Source: Solirubrobacteraceae bacterium
GTDB taxonomy: Bacteria > Actinomycetota > Thermoleophilia > Solirubrobacterales > Solirubrobacteraceae
DNA: 34,645 nt
NCBI GenBank assembly: GCA_017882455.1
Contig: JADGPL010000030.1
Coordinates: 1-34,645, forward strand
Direction: 5' to 3'
Within the stretch, counting starts at the first letter, position 1, and every line of letters begins with the position of its first letter. The notes beneath the pieces are model-generated. The model was not told the DNA's origin. It saw nothing but the letters and a program-made list of their open reading frames with translations, and searched no databases. The translations under genes were made by a program, and so were the position numbers. This document shows, in pieces, positions 20,462 to 28,773 of the stretch.

Positions 20462-21031
20462 ATGCACCTCATAACCCGATCGGCGATCACGATCGCTGCC
20501 ATGCTCGCCACCGGCGCTGCGCTCACGGCCTGCGGCAGCAGCTCGAGCGCGACAGCCGGAACGGTCGCCTTGGCGAAGACCGCTACGACGTCGCCAGCCG
20601 CCGCCACGTCGACGTCGGGCGGTAACGCGACGCAGTCCTCCAGCACAGACGTGAGCGTGATCGGCACGAACCACACTCAGGACGGCACGCTGATCGCTGG
20701 CATCGACGGGCGGACCGTGTACTACTTCCAACCCGACAAGAAGTCCAGCGCCGGTCACGCGAAGTCGAGTACGTGTTACACCGCGTGCGCAACGGTGTGG
20801 CCGCCCGTGCTGGCGACGGCGACCCCGTCGGCGGGCGGGTCTGCGAAAGCCTCGCTGATTGCGCTCACGAAGCGCACGGATGGCACGATGCAGGTGACCT
20901 ACGACGGCCTGCCTCTGTACTACTACGCCGCGGACCTGAAGGCCGGCCAGGTGACCGGCAACCACCTCCATGACGGGTTCGGGTTCTGGGGCGCCCTGCT
21001 GGCGAGCGGGCAGGACACTCCCTCGAGCTGA
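20462..21031 (+). CDS. Lipoprotein with PF03640-type secreted repeats
   Basis: The 189-aa protein is an exported lipoprotein: a hydrophobic signal (ITIAAMLATGAALTAC) ends in the lipobox Cys near residue 24, followed by a Ser/Thr/Ala-rich linker of about 40 residues. It then has two copies of the repeat with motif Y-x-[FWY]-x-x-D (COG4315 type): GRTVYYFQPDKK with the adjacent CYTACATVWPPVL, and YDGLPLYYYAADLKAGQ followed by GFGFWGAL. The function of this family is unknown; members are common in actinobacteria and proteobacteria. Two Cys (CYTAC) may form a disulfide or bind a metal. AGGAG eight to nine bases upstream supports the ATG. It stands between two cation transporters, which may point to an envelope role in metal handling. 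Confidence 0.88.
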   Translation: MHLITRSAITIAAMLATGAALTACGSSSSATAGTVALAKTATTSPAAATSTSGGNATQSSSTDVSVIGTNHTQDGTLIAGIDGRTVYYFQPDKKSSAGHAKSSTCYTACATVWPPVLATATPSAGGSAKASLIALTKRTDGTMQVTYDGLPLYYYAADLKAGQVTGNHLHDGFGFWGALLASGQDTPSS

Positions 21032-21043
21032 GCCTCGGTTCGG

Positions 21044-21078
21044 TCCCGCTCCAGCAGCCGCACTCGGCTGGAGCGGGA
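21044..21078 (+). terminator. Strong hairpin after the lipoprotein gene
   Basis: A perfect 12-base stem, TCCCGCTCCAGC at 21044-21055 and its complement at 21067-21078, encloses an 11-base loop. It begins 12 bases after the lipoprotein stop codon and separates this gene from the VIT-type gene. Confidence 0.65.
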
Positions 21079-21197
21079 TCTCACGCGCAGTTGCTTTGAG
21101 CTCCGTGCTCAACCTGCCGGCGGCTGGTATGGAAACCCCTGGGACCCGCGTATTGATTACGGATGCGACCGTTCCATCGGGCTACCACGATGTCCCC

Positions 21198-21950
21198 ATG
21201 GGGTCGATCAGCGCGGCCAAGCGCGAGGAGGCTCGTGCGCACATCCGCGAGCACGCGTTGGGCGAGGCCGCCCGGATCGGGCGTCTTTCGCGGATTCGCG
21301 AGTTCGTGCTGGGCGCTCAGGACGGGTTGCTCGTTCCCCTCGGCGTGGTCACCGGCATGGCGGCGGCGAATCCTGGGAAGGCTGCGATCCTGGTCGCCGG
21401 GCTTGCCGAGGCCGTCGCCGGCTCGATCGCCATGGGTGGAGGGTCCTACCTCGCCAGCGAGGCCGAGGAGGGTCTCTACCTGGCGGAGATCCGTGACGAG
21501 GGCCGTGAGGTCGAACAGGAGCCCGAGCGCGAGATCGCCGAGCTTGCGCTTGTGCTCGAGGAGGAAGGGCTGGATCGAGCGGCCGCCGAGGAGGTGGCCC
21601 ACGGTCTCGCGGCGAACCCGAACGTCTTCCTGCGCACGAAGGTTCAGAAGGAGCTCGGGCTGGCCCCCGATGCCGGCGGAGCGGCGGCAGGCGACGCCGT
21701 CGTCGTGGGCGCCACCTACTTGGGAGCCGCCGTGATCCCGCTGTGGCCCTACTTTCTCTTTCCCGTGGGCGTCGCGCTGCCCATCAGTCTCGGCTGCACG
21801 CTGCTGGCGCTCTTTGCGCTCGGCATCATCAAGGGCTCGGTTGCCCGACAGCGACTGGTCAGGGCCGGTCTACAGGTCCTTCTGATCGGCGGCGTCAGCG
21901 CGGGAGTCGGCTGGGTCATTGGGCATGTCGTCACCAAAATCGTCGGCTGA
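21198..21950 (+). CDS. VIT1/CCC1-family iron/manganese transporter
   Basis: This 250-aa membrane protein belongs to the vacuolar iron transporter family, which moves Fe(II) or Mn(II) out of the cytosol. The hallmark segments are present: REFVLGAQDGLLVPLGVVTG in the first membrane helix, and LAEAVAGSIAMGGGSYLASEAE in the second. A glutamate-rich cytosolic region follows (REVEQEPEREIAELALVLEEE and EEVAHGLAANP), equivalent to the metal-binding domain of plant VIT1. Three further helices end the protein. I use the ATG at 21198; an in-frame ATG at 21129 would add 23 residues not typical of the family. Neither has a strong ribosome site. The last 26 bases overlap the next ATPase gene, so the two are probably co-transcribed. 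Confidence 0.88.
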   Translation: MGSISAAKREEARAHIREHALGEAARIGRLSRIREFVLGAQDGLLVPLGVVTGMAAANPGKAAILVAGLAEAVAGSIAMGGGSYLASEAEEGLYLAEIRDEGREVEQEPEREIAELALVLEEEGLDRAAAEEVAHGLAANPNVFLRTKVQKELGLAPDAGGAAAGDAVVVGATYLGAAVIPLWPYFLFPVGVALPISLGCTLLALFALGIIKGSVARQRLVRAGLQVLLIGGVSAGVGWVIGHVVTKIVG

Positions 21951-23889
21951 ACACCCGCCGCCCGGCGCTCCAAAGGCCTTCCCGAGGCCGGACTTGGCGC
22001 GGGGCGAAGGCGAGACCCGAGAGCGCCGCTGGGGGCTCGCCGGCATCGTCGAGCATCGCGCGCTGCTCCTGGCCGCTTTGGCTGTGCTCGCGATCGTGGG
22101 CGGAGGCCTGGCGCACCTCGCCGGCGAGGGAGCCGCCGGCGATGAGATCTGGCGGGCCGCTGTTGCGCTGCTTGCGCTCGAGCTCGCCTTCGAGGTCGCT
22201 CGCACGGTCGTCGTCGATCGCCACCTGGGTGTCGACACGATCGCGCTGGTTGCGATGGTCGGCTCGCTGGCGCTCGAACAGGAGCTTGCCGGCGTGATCG
22301 TGGGCTTGATGTTCTCGGGTGGAGCGGCGCTCGAGGACATCGCCTCTACGCGTGCGCGCAGGGAGCTGACAGCGCTCATCCAGCGAGCTCCCAAGGTTGC
22401 CCAGCGGCGAGTGGGCGAGCGGATCGAGCAGGTGCCGGTGAGCGAGGTGCGCGCCGGGGACGTCGTGGTCGTGAGGACGGGCGAGGTCGTGCCGGTGGAC
22501 GGCCTGCTCGTGGCCGGTGAGGCCGTCGTGGACACCAGCACTCTGAGTGGAGAGCCGCTGCCCGTGACGATCGCGAGCGGCATGCCGGTGATGAGCGGCA
22601 CGGCCAACGCCGGCTCTCCGTTCGAGGTGCGCGCAGATCGAGCGGCGGCCGAGAGCGCCTATGCCGCCCTGGTGAGGCTGGTCGAGCAGGCGCAGGCGCA
22701 CCGTGCGCCGTTCGTGCGCATGGCGGACCGCTACGCCGGGTTCTTTCTGCCGGCGACGCTCGTGATGGCCGGCGCGGCCTGGGCGCTCAGCGGAGACGCG
22801 ATCCGAGCCCTGGCGGTCGTCGTGGTCGCCACGCCGTGCCCGCTCATCCTCGCGGCGCCGATCGCTCTGGTGTCAGGACTCTCGCGGGCCGCTCGGGCAG
22901 GGGTGATCGTCAAGGGCGCCGGTGCCATCGAGACGCTTGGGCAGGCTCGCACCGTGCTGTTCGACAAGACCGGCACGCTCACGGTCGGCACCCCTGAGGT
23001 GCGGGAGGTCCTGTGCTGTGACGGTTTCGCGCCCGGGGAGCTGCTGCGGCTTGCAGCGTCGATAGACCAGATGTCGGCGCACGTCCTCGGCAAGGCTCTC
23101 GCCTGCGCCGCAGCCGAGGATGGGGTCAGCCTCTCAACGGCGAGCGATGTGCATGAGGAGCCCGGCCAGGGCATCCAGGGCACGGTCGACGGGCAGCGTG
23201 TGACGGTTGGAAGCCGAGCATATCTCCGCAATGCAGGTGTGCCCGAGGCCGAGGTTGCCTCCGCGGCCGTCATGACGGGTAGAGGCTCCGGCGAGGCGCA
23301 CGTGCTGGTCGGGGTCGACGGTCACGTCGGTGGCGTGATCGTGATGGAAGACGAGCTGCGCGCCGAGGCCGACCGCATCGTCGAGCGACTGCGCGCGGAG
23401 GGAGTTCGTCACGTCGCGATGGTGTCAGGCGATCGCCGCTCCGTCGCCGAGCGAATCGGACGGGATCTGCGAGTCGATCGTGTCTACTCCGAACAGTCCC
23501 CCGAGCAGAAGCTCGAGGTCGTCAGGCGCCTGCAGGACGACCCCGACCTGCGGCCGGTGATCATGGTCGGCGATGGCGTCAACGACGCCCCCGCCCTCGC
23601 GTTGGCGGATCTCGGCATCGCGATGGGAGCGGCCGGCGCCACCGTCTCCTCGGAGACCGCCGATGCCGTGATCACCGTCGACCGCATAGACCGAGTCGCA
23701 GACGCCGTGCACACCGGGCACCGGGCGGTCCGCATCGCGCGCCAGAGCGTTCTCGCCGGCATGGGCCTGAGCCTCGCAGCGATGCTCATAGCGGCGCTCG
23801 GCTACCTGCCACCAGTCGCCGGAGCCCTGATCCAAGAGGCAATCGACCTGGCCGTCATCCTCAACGCGCTGCGCGCCCTGCGTGGGTAG
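21925..23889 (+). CDS. CPC-motif heavy-metal P1B-type ATPase
   Basis: This 654-aa heavy-metal exporter or importer has the P1B signature ATPCPLILAAP in M6, the actuator LSGEPLP, the phosphorylation site DKTGTLTVG and GDGVNDAPALALADLGIAMG. It begins directly with membrane segments; there is no N-terminal CxxC or His-rich metal-binding domain. The usual HP pair of the nucleotide-binding domain reads SAHVLGKAL, with Val in place of Pro. The last helix carries QEAIDLAVILNALRAL, a type I cannot assign to Cu or Zn with confidence. ATG 21925 overlaps the VIT-type gene by 26 bases; a TTG six bases earlier is also in frame. The context (VIT, CDF, permease, CsoR) supports transition-metal transport. 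Confidence 0.88.
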   Translation: MSSPKSSAEHPPPGAPKAFPRPDLARGEGETRERRWGLAGIVEHRALLLAALAVLAIVGGGLAHLAGEGAAGDEIWRAAVALLALELAFEVARTVVVDRHLGVDTIALVAMVGSLALEQELAGVIVGLMFSGGAALEDIASTRARRELTALIQRAPKVAQRRVGERIEQVPVSEVRAGDVVVVRTGEVVPVDGLLVAGEAVVDTSTLSGEPLPVTIASGMPVMSGTANAGSPFEVRADRAAAESAYAALVRLVEQAQAHRAPFVRMADRYAGFFLPATLVMAGAAWALSGDAIRALAVVVVATPCPLILAAPIALVSGLSRAARAGVIVKGAGAIETLGQARTVLFDKTGTLTVGTPEVREVLCCDGFAPGELLRLAASIDQMSAHVLGKALACAAAEDGVSLSTASDVHEEPGQGIQGTVDGQRVTVGSRAYLRNAGVPEAEVASAAVMTGRGSGEAHVLVGVDGHVGGVIVMEDELRAEADRIVERLRAEGVRHVAMVSGDRRSVAERIGRDLRVDRVYSEQSPEQKLEVVRRLQDDPDLRPVIMVGDGVNDAPALALADLGIAMGAAGATVSSETADAVITVDRIDRVADAVHTGHRAVRIARQSVLAGMGLSLAAMLIAALGYLPPVAGALIQEAIDLAVILNALRALRG

Positions 23890-23943
23890 CCCAAGGGGGC
23901 AACCGATGTCAGGATGTGCGCCTGAGGGCGGGGGTCGTGAGCG

Positions 23944-24696
23944 CTAGTGGTGGTGGGAGTGTCCGCGCACCGTTCGCAAGCTTTCGCGGGTGATGCGCAG
24001 GATGACGGCGGTCATCGCCAGGCCGATGATGGGATCGAGGACCGGGGCGCCCGCGGCGATCGCGAGGGCGCTTGCGATCACGGCGAGCGAGACGTATGCG
24101 TCAACGCGGGCATGCTCGCCGTCTGCGGTCAGCGCTGGACTGTCCAGCTCGTGTCCTGCATGGGTGCGTACCAGCGCAGCGAGCCAGTTGCCCGCGAACC
24201 CGATCGCACCGGCGAGCGCGAGGATCAGGAGGTGGCCGGGCGTGGATGGGTGGATCAGGCGCAGGATCGCCTCATAGGCGGCCACGCAGGCGGAGGTGAA
24301 GATGGCCGCCACGACCGCGAGTCCCGCTAGACGCTCGGCGCGGGGGGAGCGCAGCGCGAAGGCGATGCCGAGAGGGATCGCGGTCAGCGCGTCGCCGCCG
24401 TTGTGGATCAGGTCGGCCAGGAGGGCGAGGCTGCCGCTGAGAGCGAACACGAGCGCCTGTACCGCGGCGGTGCTCCCGAGGATGGCGAGCGCGAGCGCGA
24501 CGGCTCGGACGCCCTCGCGCGAGCGCTTGATGCTCTCATCCACGAGCCCGTGAGAGTGACCGTGCGCGTCCACGTCGCGGTCGCGATCGGCGTGCTCAGA
24601 CCGGTGCTCGTGTGGTCCGGTGTGCGGGTGAGCGTGGCGCAGGCGGCCGTGGCGGTGCAGGTCGCCTTCGACGGGCTCGTAGGTGGCTGAGGGCAC
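23944..24696 (-). CDS. Cation diffusion facilitator (CDF) metal exporter with His-rich ends
   Basis: This 250-aa CDF transporter exchanges protons for divalent metals such as Zn or Co. After a His-rich cytosolic N-terminus (12 His in the first 50 residues, including AHGHSHG), five to six hydrophobic helices carry the metal-site pairs: LADLIHNGGDAL in helix 2 (H-x3-D) and DGEHARVDAYVSL in helix 5 (H-x3-D). The protein ends right after helix 6 with RGHSHHH, so the usual C-terminal metallochaperone-like domain is missing. The start is GTG at 24696, 11 bases after the permease-YHS stop, so both are probably one transcript. The gene converges on the P1B ATPase with a gap of 54 bases. Which metal is exported is not shown by the sequence. 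Confidence 0.88.
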   Translation of the reverse strand: MPSATYEPVEGDLHRHGRLRHAHPHTGPHEHRSEHADRDRDVDAHGHSHGLVDESIKRSREGVRAVALALAILGSTAAVQALVFALSGSLALLADLIHNGGDALTAIPLGIAFALRSPRAERLAGLAVVAAIFTSACVAAYEAILRLIHPSTPGHLLILALAGAIGFAGNWLAALVRTHAGHELDSPALTADGEHARVDAYVSLAVIASALAIAAGAPVLDPIIGLAMTAVILRITRESLRTVRGHSHHH

Positions 24697-24707: not shown

Positions 24708-25973
24708 TCAGTGGTGGTGCCTGTGGTGGTGCGAGCCCGTGGCCTGCCGCTCGGTTTCAGGGACTGTGGGGTTGGCCTCGAAGGCGTGCAGGCAATGCTC
24801 TGAGCAGAAGTAGAACCTCTCCCCGGCGAAGTCCATCTGGATCGCCTTGGCCTTGTCGACCTTCATGCCACACACGGGGTCGGTGACGCCGCGTCGCATG
24901 GTCAGGGAGAAGAGGGCGCCGAAGACAGCCACGCCGAGGAGGTTGGTGAAGAGCTTGTAGTCGAGCCTGATCTGGCCGAAGATGTCAGCCCGCGTGGGCC
25001 TCGTGTGGGGGATGAGCCCTACGCCGCTGAACAGGCCGTCCACGATCAGCGCCGCGAGCACCATCGTCACGAACATCAGCGCGACGATTCGCAGGGCGTA
25101 GGCGTTGCCGTAGTACTTGCGATAGATCTGGACGATCGGCAGGACGATCAGGTCGGCGAAGATGAAGGCGATCACACCGGCGAAGCTGATCCCGCCCGAC
25201 CACAGCACTGCGGCGAGCGGCACGTTGCCGACCGAGCAGACGAAGCTGAAGATCGCGATGAGCGGCCCGACGATCGCGTTCTCGATCAGCTTCAACCCTG
25301 CCGGCGCGCTCGTGATGAAGAGGCTGTTGAAGAAGCTGTTGGGGAGCTGGCCGACGAAGCCCGCGAGCAGAAAGCCGATCAGGATCTCCTTCCACACCAT
25401 CGACCAGTCGTTGCGGAAGTTGTGCGCGACGTCCGACCAGGCGCTCGCGCTCGTCAGGCGCCGGCGGATCGTCATGTGCTCGCCGGCGCTGTGGTGTTGG
25501 TGGCCGGTGTCGGCCTCCTGTGCGTGCTCGCGTGCCTGCTCCTCCAGGCGCCTTGACACGAACAGGCGCAGGAGCACGGTCATGATCGCGATCAGGACGA
25601 GCCCGCCGACGAACTCCGCGAGCGTGAACTGCCAACCGATCAGAACCCACATGACGATCCCCAGCTCGACCACGAGGTTGGTCGAGCTGAACTGGAAGGC
25701 AAGCGCAGAAGCCGCCGAGGCGCCCTTCTGAAAGAGGCTCTTGGCGATCGCGATCGCGGCATAGCTGCACGAGGAGGAGGCGGCGCCCAGCCCGGTTGCC
25801 AGTGCGACTGGGCGAAAGCCCGAGCCGCCGAGGGCATCTTGGATGCGCTCGCGGGGGACCCACGCCTGGACCACCGCGGAGATCGCGAAGCCGAGGACCA
25901 GCGCCCACCAGACCTCCCACGCCATCAGGAACGCGTCCTTGAAGCCGTCGCCGATGGTCGTCAGTACACCCAC
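24708..25973 (-). CDS. Permease (UPF0718/DUF318) fused to a YHS metal-binding domain
   Basis: This 421-aa protein has eight or more membrane segments in two halves, separated by a charged His-containing loop (about residues 145-200). Each half has a conserved Cys in a helix: SSSCSYAAIAIAKS and FVCSVGNVPLAAV, the signature of the UPF0718/ArsP-like permeases. After the last helix comes a YHS domain, DPVCGMKVDKAKA with FYFCSEHCLHAF, which offers four Cys/His ligands, and then a tail HHHRHHH. I use the GTG at 25973: TATTCT lies six bases ahead, so the message would be leaderless, and an earlier ATG at 26081 would run through the csoR gene. It is divergent from csoR and shares its operator, and is followed by the CDF gene. 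A metal or metalloid efflux role is likely; copper is suggested by CsoR. Confidence 0.82.
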   Translation of the reverse strand: MGVLTTIGDGFKDAFLMAWEVWWALVLGFAISAVVQAWVPRERIQDALGGSGFRPVALATGLGAASSSCSYAAIAIAKSLFQKGASAASALAFQFSSTNLVVELGIVMWVLIGWQFTLAEFVGGLVLIAIMTVLLRLFVSRRLEEQAREHAQEADTGHQHHSAGEHMTIRRRLTSASAWSDVAHNFRNDWSMVWKEILIGFLLAGFVGQLPNSFFNSLFITSAPAGLKLIENAIVGPLIAIFSFVCSVGNVPLAAVLWSGGISFAGVIAFIFADLIVLPIVQIYRKYYGNAYALRIVALMFVTMVLAALIVDGLFSGVGLIPHTRPTRADIFGQIRLDYKLFTNLLGVAVFGALFSLTMRRGVTDPVCGMKVDKAKAIQMDFAGERFYFCSEHCLHAFEANPTVPETERQATGSHHHRHHH

Positions 25974-25979
25974 ACCGCT

Positions 25980-25985
25980 AGAATA
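25980..25985 (-). promoter_or_regulatory. -10 box of leaderless permease-YHS gene
   Basis: On the minus strand TATTCT is followed by six bases (AGCGGT) and the GTG at 25973. It overlaps the left arm of the CsoR-type operator. Confidence 0.6.
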
Positions 25986-26000
25986 CCCCCACCCCGTATT
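25982..26000. promoter_or_regulatory. CsoR-type operator between csoR and the permease gene
   Basis: AATAC at 25982-25986 and GTATT at 25996-26000 are perfect inverted arms around a nine-base C-rich centre CCCCACCCC. The pattern ATAC plus C-run plus GTAT is that of operators bound by CsoR/RcnR-family repressors. It overlaps the minus-strand -10 box and ends two bases before the plus-strand one, so a bound repressor would block both genes. Confidence 0.7.
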
Positions 26001-26002
26001 GG

Positions 26003-26008
26003 TATCCT
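26003..26008 (+). promoter_or_regulatory. -10 box of leaderless csoR
   Basis: TATCCT is followed by six bases (GGCGCG) and the ATG at 26015, with no ribosome site between. The mirror arrangement on the other strand uses the same spacing. Confidence 0.6.
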
Positions 26009-26014
26009 GGCGCG

Positions 26015-26317
26015 ATGGCGACCGCCCATGCAACGCCCGCTGGAAGGGGTTATCAGGCAAGCAAGGACCAACTCCTCGCACGACTTGGACGCATCAAGGG
26101 CCAGGTCTCCGGCATCGAGCGCATGATCGAGCAGGACCGCTACTGCATCGACGTCCTCACCCAGATATCAGCGATCCAGGCCGCACTGGACAAGGTCGCG
26201 CTCGGGTTGTTGGACGGACACGCCCGCACCTGTGTCCTCGATGCTGAGGCCGAGCATCAAGAGGAGCGCGCCGTCGAGCTGATGGCCGCCGTCGGGCGAC
26301 TCATGCGCCGCGGATGA
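26015..26317 (+). CDS. csoR: CsoR-family metal-sensing transcriptional repressor
   Basis: CsoR is a DUF156 helical repressor that leaves DNA when it binds Cu(I). This 100-aa protein has the family core: LLARLGRIKGQVSGIERMIE (helix 1), then Cys44 in RYCIDVLTQI, and His69 and Cys73 in DGHARTCV. The C-H-C set is the Cu(I) triad of mycobacterial CsoR, so copper is the best guess for the signal; nickel and formaldehyde sensors of the family use other ligands. The ATG at 26015 lies six bases after a -10 box. It is transcribed away from the permease-YHS and CDF genes, with a CsoR-type operator between, so autoregulation and control of that efflux unit are likely. Confidence 0.92.
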   Translation: MATAHATPAGRGYQASKDQLLARLGRIKGQVSGIERMIEQDRYCIDVLTQISAIQAALDKVALGLLDGHARTCVLDAEAEHQEERAVELMAAVGRLMRRG

Positions 26318-26483: not shown

Positions 26484-27281
26484 ATGTCCACAGCAATGGT
26501 CGTAGTCATAGTCTTGGCTGGGCTTGCGCTGCTTCTCTTGGCGAGCGCAATTCGGATCGTGCGGGAGTATCAGCGCGTGGTGGTGTTTCGTCTCGGACGT
26601 TTGCGCGGGGCGCGCGGGCCGGGCCTGGTGTTGATCATCCCGTTCATCGAGCGCACTCGGTGGGTGAACCTCCAGATCGACACTGCCGACATCCCGCCGC
26701 AGGACGTCATCACGAAGGACAACGTGACCGTGCGGGTCGAGGCGGCCGTGTTCTACCGTGTCGTGGATCCGGTGAAGGCGGTCGTGGCGATCCGCGACTA
26801 CGAACACGGTGTGCTCCGCATTGCCCAGACGACTCTGCGGGCCACGCTTGGTCAGCATGAACTCGACGACCTGCTCGCCAACCAGGCTGCGATCAACGAG
26901 TTGCTCAAGCAGATCATCGACTCCGCGACGGAGCCGTGGGGCGTCAATGTGGTGAAGGTGGAGACCAAGGACGTGGATCTGCCGGACACGATGAAGCGCG
27001 CGATGGCGCGTCAGGCAGAGGCCGAGCGCGAGCGTCGCGCGAAGGTGATCGCTGCCGAGGGCGAGTATCAGGCGGCGGAGCGTCTCTCCCAGGCCGCTGG
27101 AGTGATCGCCCGAGAGCCCGGAACGCTGACGCTGCGCACGTTGCAGACGCTCGCCGAGGTCGCTACCGAGCACAACTCGACGATTGTGCTGCCAATACCG
27201 CTTGACATCCTCGATGCGGTGCGCCAGCGCGCACGGCCGGCGCCGTCGAGCCACGGGCATACCGAGGCCCCCGCCGCCTAG
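26484..27281 (+). CDS. Slipin/stomatin-like SPFH (band 7) membrane protein
   Basis: This 265-aa protein is a bacterial slipin, a scaffold thought to organise membrane microdomains and often paired with an NfeD protease. One N-terminal membrane helix (MVVVIVLAGLALLLLA) is followed by the SPFH domain: REYQRVVVFRLGRLRGARGPG, PFIERTRWVNLQIDTADIPPQ, then VTVRVEAAVFYRVVDP. A charged helix AEAERERRAKVIAAEGEYQAAERL leads to oligomerisation helices, ending with a short polar tail. No NfeD gene is adjacent. The ATG at 26484 is chosen because it opens the frame; an ATG four codons later is also possible, and no ribosome site is clear. It meets the next gene tail to tail at a shared hairpin. Confidence 0.92.
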   Translation: MSTAMVVVIVLAGLALLLLASAIRIVREYQRVVVFRLGRLRGARGPGLVLIIPFIERTRWVNLQIDTADIPPQDVITKDNVTVRVEAAVFYRVVDPVKAVVAIRDYEHGVLRIAQTTLRATLGQHELDDLLANQAAINELLKQIIDSATEPWGVNVVKVETKDVDLPDTMKRAMARQAEAERERRAKVIAAEGEYQAAERLSQAAGVIAREPGTLTLRTLQTLAEVATEHNSTIVLPIPLDILDAVRQRARPAPSSHGHTEAPAA

Positions 27282-27300
27282 AAGGCCAGCGGCCTTCTAG
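27278..27300. terminator. Bidirectional terminator containing both stop codons
   Basis: A perfect 10-base stem, CTAGAAGGCC at 27278-27287 and GGCCTTCTAG at 27291-27300, has a three-base loop. The TAG stop of the slipin gene (27279-27281) lies in the left arm and the TAG stop of the convergent gene (27299-27297) in the right arm. It is followed by no T-run in either direction. Confidence 0.75.
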
Positions 27301-28445
27301 TACCGCAGGAGGGCCGCAATCGAGCCCCGTTGGGCGAGGGCGTCCGGATGGTGGCGCACGGCCAGGACCTCGGCGGACTGCCTGAGCGCGAGCTCGATCG
27401 CTCGCTCGATCACGTCCTCCACCGGTTCTGGCGTGGTGCCATCAGCCGGGCATGCGAGCGCGCCGACGGACAGGCGGCCGCACTGCGGGCAGGCGAACCC
27501 GGGCGCGGTGAATCCATGCGCGAATAGGAGCGTCTGCACGCGGGCCTCGGCGAGCAGCCCGAGCACCTCGTCCAGGCCGGTGGCACCGTGCCCGTTCGGG
27601 GCGAGGCCCTCCTCCAGCCGATCGAGCGTCTCGCGCTCGCGGCGGCTCTCGTCGGCTTCGATCACAGGGAGCGCGCGGGTCCGGATCTCCTCGGCGCTGG
27701 CGCGCTCGACGTCGATCTCGAAGTGGCCGGCCAGCCTCTGGCTGAGATCGGGGTGCAACTCGTGCTCGACGCGGTGGCGAAGCTCGCTCGGGCTCGCGAT
27801 GAGCAGCCGCTCGAACCGCGCCCCCTTGAACCGCTCATACAGGTTCGAGCAGGCGCTGCGGATGTGCTCGTCGACTTCGGTCTCGATCCCGCGCTGGTAG
27901 CGCCCCTGCGAGCGCCCGCCCTGCGAGTGGCGACCGCGAACGTCGTCGAGCACGCTGTCCACCTCCACGAGGTGCTCGCGCGCGCCGCGCAGGATGCGGC
28001 TCGTGCGACGGCTTATCGCCAGCACACACCAGCGCTCGGGAGCGGCGAGCTCCACGAGCGGCTCGATGAACGGACGGGCGTCGAGCACCGCCGCATCCGG
28101 GACTCCTCGCGGCAGGCTCACCACGTCGAAGAGCTCGATCGGCGTTGAGCAGAAGATCGCGAGGCCCCGTGCGGAGGGCACCGCGAGCTCGGCGTCTGTG
28201 AAGAACTCTCGCACCCGCTCGATGCCTCCGCGCAGCGCGAGGCGCTCGGCGTGCGATCCCTGCTCCTCGGCCGCGTGGCTGCGCTCGAGCTCGTCGAGCA
28301 AAGCGTCGAGCTCCATGTGGCGCTCGCGCAGGTTCGGGAAGTCGGACGGGTCGAGGCTCAGATAGAGGCTCAGGACGCGATGACCGTCCGTCTCCAGCCG
28401 AGTCAGGCGGTCGATGGCCTCGCCCAGGTTGCTGGTCCTGTTCAC
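27297..28445 (-). CDS. Vms1/Ankzf1-like (bacterial eRF1-type) peptidyl-tRNA hydrolase
   Basis: The 382-aa protein resembles the bacterial release-factor-1-like family related to eukaryotic Vms1/ANKZF1, which cuts nascent chains from tRNA on stalled ribosomes. Visible elements: an N-terminal domain from LTRLETDGHRVLSLYLSLDP, a central eRF1-like segment with the catalytic-loop pattern SQGGRSQGRYQRGIE (Gln-containing, as in Vms1), a domain with LLIASPSELRHRVEHELHP, and a C-terminal part containing a possible zinc site CPQCGRLSVGALACPADG. It is cytosolic. The GTG at 28445 shares bases with the upstream stop (GTGA), fixing the start; a longer frame to 28733 lies over the upstream gene. It converges on the slipin gene at a shared terminator. 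A direct role in ribosome rescue is inferred from the family. Confidence 0.8.
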   Translation of the reverse strand: MNRTSNLGEAIDRLTRLETDGHRVLSLYLSLDPSDFPNLRERHMELDALLDELERSHAAEEQGSHAERLALRGGIERVREFFTDAELAVPSARGLAIFCSTPIELFDVVSLPRGVPDAAVLDARPFIEPLVELAAPERWCVLAISRRTSRILRGAREHLVEVDSVLDDVRGRHSQGGRSQGRYQRGIETEVDEHIRSACSNLYERFKGARFERLLIASPSELRHRVEHELHPDLSQRLAGHFEIDVERASAEEIRTRALPVIEADESRRERETLDRLEEGLAPNGHGATGLDEVLGLLAEARVQTLLFAHGFTAPGFACPQCGRLSVGALACPADGTTPEPVEDVIERAIELALRQSAEVLAVRHHPDALAQRGSIAALLRY

Positions 28446-28684
28446 TGGTCGACCGTGACATCGACGGGGCGCAGGCTCATCGCACCGAGCTCGCCCGGCG
28501 TGTACGGCTGGACCTCGAGCGTCAGGCAGTCCTCGAGCGACGCGAACGGCTGTCGCTGGGTGGTACTGAACTGTGAGACGACACGAAAGAGGCGCCGGCC
28601 GTCGGTCAGATAGCTCTCGGAGTCCAACCGCCGCTCCCTGGGGGCGCGCAGACCCGAGCGAGGACGAAACAGGGTGATCGACAT
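28442..28684 (-). CDS. Small unknown protein coupled to the Vms1-like gene
   Basis: I do not recognise this 80-aa protein. It starts at the ATG at 28684, with GGAG five to eight bases ahead, and its stop overlaps the GTG of the Vms1-like gene, so the pair is translationally coupled. Seen in the sequence: a basic N-terminus (LFRPRSGLRAPRERR), a beta-rich stretch SYLTDGRRLFRVVSQFST, then EDCLTLEVQPYTPGEL with one Cys, and a C-terminus of alternating hydrophobic residues. No membrane segment is present. An ATG at 28720 would add 12 residues. Coupling suggests a joint function in translation quality control, but this is inference. Confidence 0.65.
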   Translation of the reverse strand: MSITLFRPRSGLRAPRERRLDSESYLTDGRRLFRVVSQFSTTQRQPFASLEDCLTLEVQPYTPGELGAMSLRPVDVTVDQ

Positions 28685-28773
28685 GCTCCGATGCTCCCGC
28701 TTCGGGTCCGGTGCGCGCATCCGCAGGCGCCACGGCTATCGCGGGGGAGGACTACGTAGAACAGGCCCGCATC

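What the first reader, a model, noticed from the sequence alone, without database searches (positions are those of the whole stretch)
25973..26015. Divergent csoR and permease-YHS genes, both leaderless, share one CsoR operator
In 42 bases two -10 boxes (TATTCT minus, TATCCT plus) each lie exactly six bases before a start codon (GTG 25973 and ATG 26015), and an AATAC-N9-GTATT operator with a C-run sits between them. A single bound repressor would shut both promoters, and neither message would have a 5' leader. The permease is followed by a CDF exporter, so copper sensing would control a permease-YHS/CDF pair and not only a CopA-type ATPase.
Basis: partly seen in the sequence, partly recalled or inferred. 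Interest (0 to 1): 0.65.

Follow-up and report, generated by a model that had tools for sequence, protein, structure and literature searches.

The report
Leaderless copper-sensor divergon lacking CopA pump
A copper-sensing repressor and a membrane exporter are read in opposite directions from a 41-base gap that holds one repressor site and two promoters set directly against the start codons, and in related bacteria the genomes with this arrangement lack the usual copper-pumping ATPase, so the exporter probably does that job.

Summary
csoR (+, ATG 26015) and an ArsP_1-YHS permease (-, GTG 25973) are divergent; each has a TANNNT -10 exactly 6 nt before its start; one TAC-N9-GTA site (25984-25998) lies between. 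In relatives with the same divergon the -10 sits 6-8 nt before csoR in 22 of 24 (0.6 expected) and before the permease in 13 of 24. The genome itself shows a -10 peak at 6 nt. Leaderlessness of both arms is well supported, by sequence only. The operator is the only one of its kind in the genome; unusually, both G-tracts lie on one strand. The CsoR has the copper Cys-His-Cys ligands. The CDF partnership is local (2 of about 58 loci). New here: genomes with the csoR-permease divergon have no CopA ATPase (0 of 18), and across the order permease and CopA are almost mutually exclusive (CopA in 6/44 against 123/157). Elsewhere in the order csoR faces copA itself. The permease is most likely the copper exporter that took CopA's place. 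The kind is known (Bradyrhizobium csoR-cueA divergon with leaderless csoR; mycobacterial RicR controlling permease Rv2963); this is a new variant.

The parts
26015..26317 (+). csoR, Cu-type CsoR/RcnR-family repressor (100 aa), leaderless start
   Evidence: Pfam PF02583 99.1 bits; aligns to CsoR structures 4adz, 4m1p, 2hh7 with the Cys-His-Cys ligands; only family member in the genome
24708..25973 (-). ArsP_1 permease with C-terminal YHS domain, proposed Cu(I) exporter, leaderless GTG start
   Evidence: PF03773 218.6 bits and PF04945 51.4 bits; invariant C69 and C246; ion-transporter-superfamily fold, best Z 15.4, rmsd 4.0, 297 aligned
25984..25998 (.). CsoR operator TAC-CCCCACCCC-GTA (within AATAC-N9-GTATT 25982-26000); both G-tracts on the minus strand
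   Evidence: TAC-X9-GTA rule from PMC3902906; identical sequence upstream of csoR in L223 and L224
26003..26008 (+). -10 element TATCCT of csoR, 6 nt before ATG
25980..25985 (-). -10 element TATTCT of the permease, 6 nt before GTG; overlaps the operator by 2 bases
23944..24696 (-). CDF cation exporter, start 11 nt after the permease stop; probably in the same transcript, not conserved in this position
   Evidence: PF01545, TIGR01297; adjacency check

Best explanation
This is a compact copper-responsive divergon. Without copper, CsoR sits on the single TAC-N9-GTA operator and blocks RNA polymerase at both -10 elements. Copper bound by the Cys-His-Cys site releases it, and both genes are transcribed from their start codons without 5' leaders, so CsoR limits its own level while the permease (and, here, the CDF behind it) is made. 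The permease is most likely the cell's copper exporter, standing in for the CopA ATPase that csoR faces in most of the order. Shown by sequence: gene identities, geometry, conservation of operator and -10 positions, ligand residues, CopA absence. Inferred: CsoR binding, copper sensing, absence of leaders in real transcripts, copper as the permease substrate.
For: Conserved -10 positions on both arms in relatives and a genome-wide leaderless signature. Operator conserved across the order and unique in this genome. C-H-C ligands with a Tyr (Trp in one) before the first Cys in all 101 CsoRs examined and alignment to solved Cu-CsoRs including the Gln needed for operator binding. CopA (TIGR01511) in 0 of 18 divergon genomes, 6 of 44 permease genomes against 123 of 157 others (p 5e-15); within the window's genus 0 of 15 against 6 of 9 (p 6e-4). 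In five phylogenetically independent pairs CopA goes the opposite way in nearly all. csoR is divergent from copA in at least 29 other loci. Palindromic CsoR/RicR-type sites also precede the permease in Mycobacterium and Streptomyces, and RicR controls the permease Rv2963 in M. tuberculosis (PMC10961391). A csoR-exporter divergon with one box over both -10s and a leaderless csoR has been mapped by 5'-RACE in Bradyrhizobium (PMC5057107).
Against: No expression or binding data. The window's operator departs from the C4..G4 inverted form used by most relatives. About 11 of 24 relatives lack a -10 close to the chosen permease start, so leaderlessness of that arm is less conserved. The independent-pair test alone gives p 0.0625. 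Most genomes are incomplete MAGs. CopA counts were transcribed by hand; 143 genomes were counted as CopA-bearing against the tool's 146. ArsP_1 permeases of other branches move organoarsenicals or other metals (own knowledge).
Confidence: 0.75

Rival explanations
1. The divergon is CsoR-controlled, but the permease exports something other than copper (for example zinc, cadmium or a trivalent arsenical) and CopA's absence is coincidental.
For: ArsP_1 is named for an arsenical permease; the nearest NCBIfam models are the Cu/Zn transporter SO_0444 (69.5 bits, cut-off 300) and SaoE (61.5, cut-off 325), neither reached. Bradyrhizobium csoR-cueA also responds to Zn and Cd (PMC5057107).
Against: Mutual exclusion with CopA; CsoR/RicR-type operators upstream of the permease in several lineages; RicR regulation of Rv2963 by copper.
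Confidence: 0.2
2. The same-strand G-tract operator is a decayed site that CsoR no longer binds, so both genes are unregulated in this species.
For: Most relatives keep the C4..G4 inverted form (55 perfect sites against 22 same-strand).
Against: Same-strand sites recur (22 against about 0.03 expected), keep TAC/GTA and spacing exactly, and two loci carry the identical 15-mer. Three of four members of the window's CsoR clade have this form.
Confidence: 0.08
3. Transcripts have short or longer leaders from other start sites, and the -10-like boxes are chance.
For: Only sequence is available; some relatives (L003, L011, L013, L016) have no -10 close to the permease start.
Against: 22 of 24 relatives keep TANNNT 6-8 nt before csoR and the genome-wide peak is at 6 nt.
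Confidence: 0.07

Closest known systems
csoR-cueA divergon of Bradyrhizobium liaoningense (PMC5057107)
   Same: csoR divergent from a metal exporter, one CsoR box over both -10 elements, csoR mRNA leaderless by 5'-RACE
   Different: Exporter is a CopA-type ATPase with a 42-nt leader; here it is an ArsP_1-YHS permease whose own start also looks leaderless, and the tracts are on one strand
RicR regulon of M. tuberculosis (permease Rv2963; PMC10961391)
   Same: CsoR-family copper repressor controls a permease of what appears to be the same family; mycobacterial relatives L068 and L075 are 47-48% identical and carry CsoR-type sites
   Different: RicR controls several scattered promoters; here one self-contained divergon and only one site in the genome. 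NCBIfam RicR cut-off not reached. Identity of Rv2963 to these permeases was not tested directly
S. lividans CsoR with type 2 operators (PMC3902906)
   Same: TAC-X9-GTA, two G/C tracts, C-H-C ligands, conserved Gln
   Different: There the tracts are inverted (C4..G4); here both G-tracts are on one strand, as in type 1 sites but with type 2 spacing
nreAXY operon of Mesorhizobium (PMC12724321)
   Same: CsoR/RcnR-family repressor, operator between promoter elements, leaderless transcript
   Different: Nickel sensor, not divergent, type 1 operator with one G7 tract

Membership tests
CsoR (copper-sensing) | Trns_repr_metal (DUF156) family | tested here: met
   PF02583, 99.1 bits against cut-off 22.8
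CsoR (copper-sensing) | Cys-His-Cys Cu(I) ligands, with Tyr before the first Cys | tested here: met
   aligned to 2hh7, 4adz and 4m1p; motif in all 101 relatives
CsoR (copper-sensing) | RLXR motif and conserved Gln used for DNA contact in S. lividans CsoR | tested here: met
   window has RLGR and YCIDVLTQ, aligned to S. lividans RLRR and YCIDILTQ
CsoR (copper-sensing) | Cu(I) binding that releases DNA | not testable with these tools
   needs purified protein
RicR (NCBIfam NF052430) | score over curated cut-off 175 | tested here: not met
   95.8 bits
Type 2 CsoR operator | TAC-X9-GTA dyad | tested here: met
   25984-25998
Type 2 CsoR operator | two G/C tracts arranged as an inverted pair | tested here: not met
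   CCCCACCCC: both tracts on one strand
Leaderless promoter | -10 element 6-8 nt before the start codon, conserved in relatives | tested here: met
   strong for csoR (22/24), moderate for the permease (13/24)
Leaderless promoter | mapped 5' end at the start codon | not testable with these tools
   no RNA data
SO_0444 Cu/Zn efflux transporter (NF033936) | score over curated cut-off 300 | tested here: not met
   69.5 bits; shares only the Pfam family ArsP_1
CopA (TIGR01511), for the neighbouring P1B ATPase 21919-23889 | score over cut-off 397 and a CPC motif | tested here: not met
   334.6 bits and TPC instead of CPC

The most novel reading that the evidence does not exclude
In Solirubrobacterales an ArsP_1-YHS permease with an ion-transporter-superfamily (elevator-type) fold has repeatedly replaced the CopA ATPase as the copper exporter opposite csoR. 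This would be a carrier, not an ATPase, as the sole CsoR-controlled copper exporter, with its substrate site at two invariant cysteines lying in helix breaks of the two halves. It is driven by a bidirectional promoter without leaders on either side and with a CsoR operator of free G-tract polarity.
Probability: 0.5. Interest if true: 0.7.

Novelty: new variant of a known kind. Interest (0 to 1): 0.5.

Why it matters
CopA is usually treated as the standard bacterial Cu(I) exporter. A CsoR-controlled permease that is nearly mutually exclusive with CopA gives a concrete, testable candidate for a different copper exporter, and a function for the uncharacterised Rv2963-type permeases of the RicR regulon. 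The operators also bear on how CsoR reads DNA: TAC/GTA stays fixed while tract polarity flips, which fits the proposed shape readout. The promoter is a minimal 41-bp bidirectional switch.

Tried and rejected
CDF as a conserved partner: rejected, only one other locus has a close CDF directly behind the permease. A wider CsoR regulon in this genome: no further operator with uniform tracts. The TACCCC-N6-GTA count alone is not enriched over the reversed-pattern control, so the operator claim rests on position and conservation. P1B ATPase 21919-23889 as CopA: rejected, below the Cu cut-off and TPC motif. A solved homologue by sequence: none. Foldseek alone gave no match under E 0.001; the VIA-align second look gave a consistent ion-transporter-superfamily set with a sharp drop after it (Z 15.4 down to 8.2, then 4.9). 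A search for papers with CsoR, DUF318 and YHS found nothing relevant, nor did YHS domain with copper, permease and CopA.

Full report
What is there. Two genes diverge from a 41-bp gap (25974-26014). To the right csoR (26015-26317, +; PF02583); to the left a permease with ArsP_1 and YHS domains (24708-25973, -), followed after 11 nt by a CDF exporter (23944-24696, -). csoR is the only gene of its family in the 3.3 Mb, 95% complete genome.

Leaderless starts. In 428 kb of the same genome TANNNT peaks at 6 nt before start codons (13 of 912 candidates, about nine times the level of other positions), which is the spacing of both boxes here. In 24 other divergent csoR-permease loci, mostly Solirubrobacterales, TANNNT ends 6-8 nt before csoR in 22 and before the conservatively chosen permease start in 13; shuffles give 0.6 and 0.7. 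Box sequences vary (TAGGAT, TAAGCT, TACACT, TATAAT) while the distance holds, which is what selection on position looks like. The csoR side is strong, the permease side moderate: some relatives (L003, L013, L016) have longer gaps there. Only RNA data can settle it.

Operator. The element fits TAC-X9-GTA, the rule found for S. lividans CsoR (PMC3902906). Upstream of 101 csoR genes there are 77 perfect sites with C/G tracts: 55 inverted (C..G), 22 with both tracts on one strand (17 GG, 5 CC), none in the G..C order; fewer than 0.1 expected. The window's site is of the one-strand kind, as are those of close relatives L005 and L166, and the same 15-mer (reverse complement) occurs in L223 and L224. 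In many csoR-copA regions a one-strand site lies about 34-39 bp from an inverted one. So the window's form is unusual but recurrent. In the window it overlaps the permease -10 by two bases and ends 4 bp before the csoR -10, so occupancy should block both. The window genome holds no other such site.

Sensor. The protein aligns with solved copper CsoRs and keeps the Cys-His-Cys ligands, the preceding Tyr, the RLXR motif and the Gln needed for DNA contact. Copper is the expected inducer, but this is inference; a related divergon also answers to Zn and Cd (PMC5057107).

Exporter. The genome has four P-type ATPases: KdpB, two that give no match to the copper-ATPase model at E 1e-60, and one P1B with a TPC motif that misses the CopA cut-off. 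Testing the order: CopA over cut-off (with 7 borderline cases counted in) occurs in 6 of 44 genomes with a close permease and 123 of 157 without (Fisher p 5e-15), in 0 of 15 against 6 of 9 inside the window's genus (p 6e-4), and in 0 of 18 genomes with the csoR-permease divergon. The six genomes with both are not among those with the divergon. In five phylogenetically independent pairs CopA goes against the permease in nearly all; five pairs cannot reach p 0.05. Elsewhere csoR is divergent from copA in at least 29 loci, and on the CsoR tree the permease label needs at least four changes. The simplest reading is that the permease took CopA's place more than once. CsoR-type sites also precede the permease in Mycobacterium and Streptomyces, matching reported RicR control of Rv2963 (PMC10961391).

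How the permease may work. C69 and C246 are invariant in 29 sequences down to 42% identity, with M17 and D274. The AlphaFold2 model (mean pLDDT 79) puts both cysteines in breaks between helices (53-65/70-82 and 225-243/247-260). It aligns with ion-transporter-superfamily carriers (NaCT, VcINDY, YdaH, MtrF, TRAP; Z 15.4 down to 8.2, next unrelated row 4.9). A two-cysteine Cu(I) site in an elevator-type carrier is plausible; it is not shown, and no solved relative exists by sequence.

CDF. Only one other locus of about 58 has a close CDF directly behind the permease (L013/L099); in L012/L148 it lies beyond csoR. It is a local addition.

Verdict. Observation confirmed; interpretation right on the shared operator and leaderless starts, wrong in giving weight to the CDF. 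The architecture has a close precedent in Bradyrhizobium. The new content is the exporter identity and its exclusion of CopA, the second leaderless arm, and the one-strand operator. CopA/permease counts were copied by hand from tool tables (143 CopA genomes counted against the tool's 146) and most genomes are MAGs.

Noticed in passing
L166 (G002:C114:6200-9600): Second csoR in a genome of the same genus, with its own operator (TACCCCTCCCCGGTA), facing only a remnant of the permease (residues 335-380) and an intact CDF 82% identical to the window's: a decaying copy of this divergon.
   Followed up: partly
L146, L155, L160, L192, L206, L219, L223 upstream of csoR: csoR regions with two operators about 34-39 bp apart, the csoR-distal one of form TACGGGNNGGGGGTA with both G-tracts on one strand.
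   Followed up: partly
window 20970-24696: Metal-transport cluster beside the divergon: an ORF resembling a VIT1/CCC1-type iron/manganese transporter (by eye), a P1B ATPase with a TPC motif, and the CDF.
   Followed up: no
window 26484-27281: SPFH/Band-7 (stomatin/HflK-like) gene about 170 bp behind csoR on the same strand; possible read-through from the csoR promoter.
   Followed up: no
window 27297-28733: Minus-strand gene matching baeRF family 10 and, below cut-off, the MSMEG_1130 ribosome hibernation factor family.
   Followed up: no
L022-L025, L027, L041 in front of the permease: Close permeases without csoR nearby; the stretch in front of the permease start shares a similar sequence (GCAGGCGTCGTTGGT...TCTTGAAGCTGTT), suggesting another conserved neighbour gene.
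   Followed up: no
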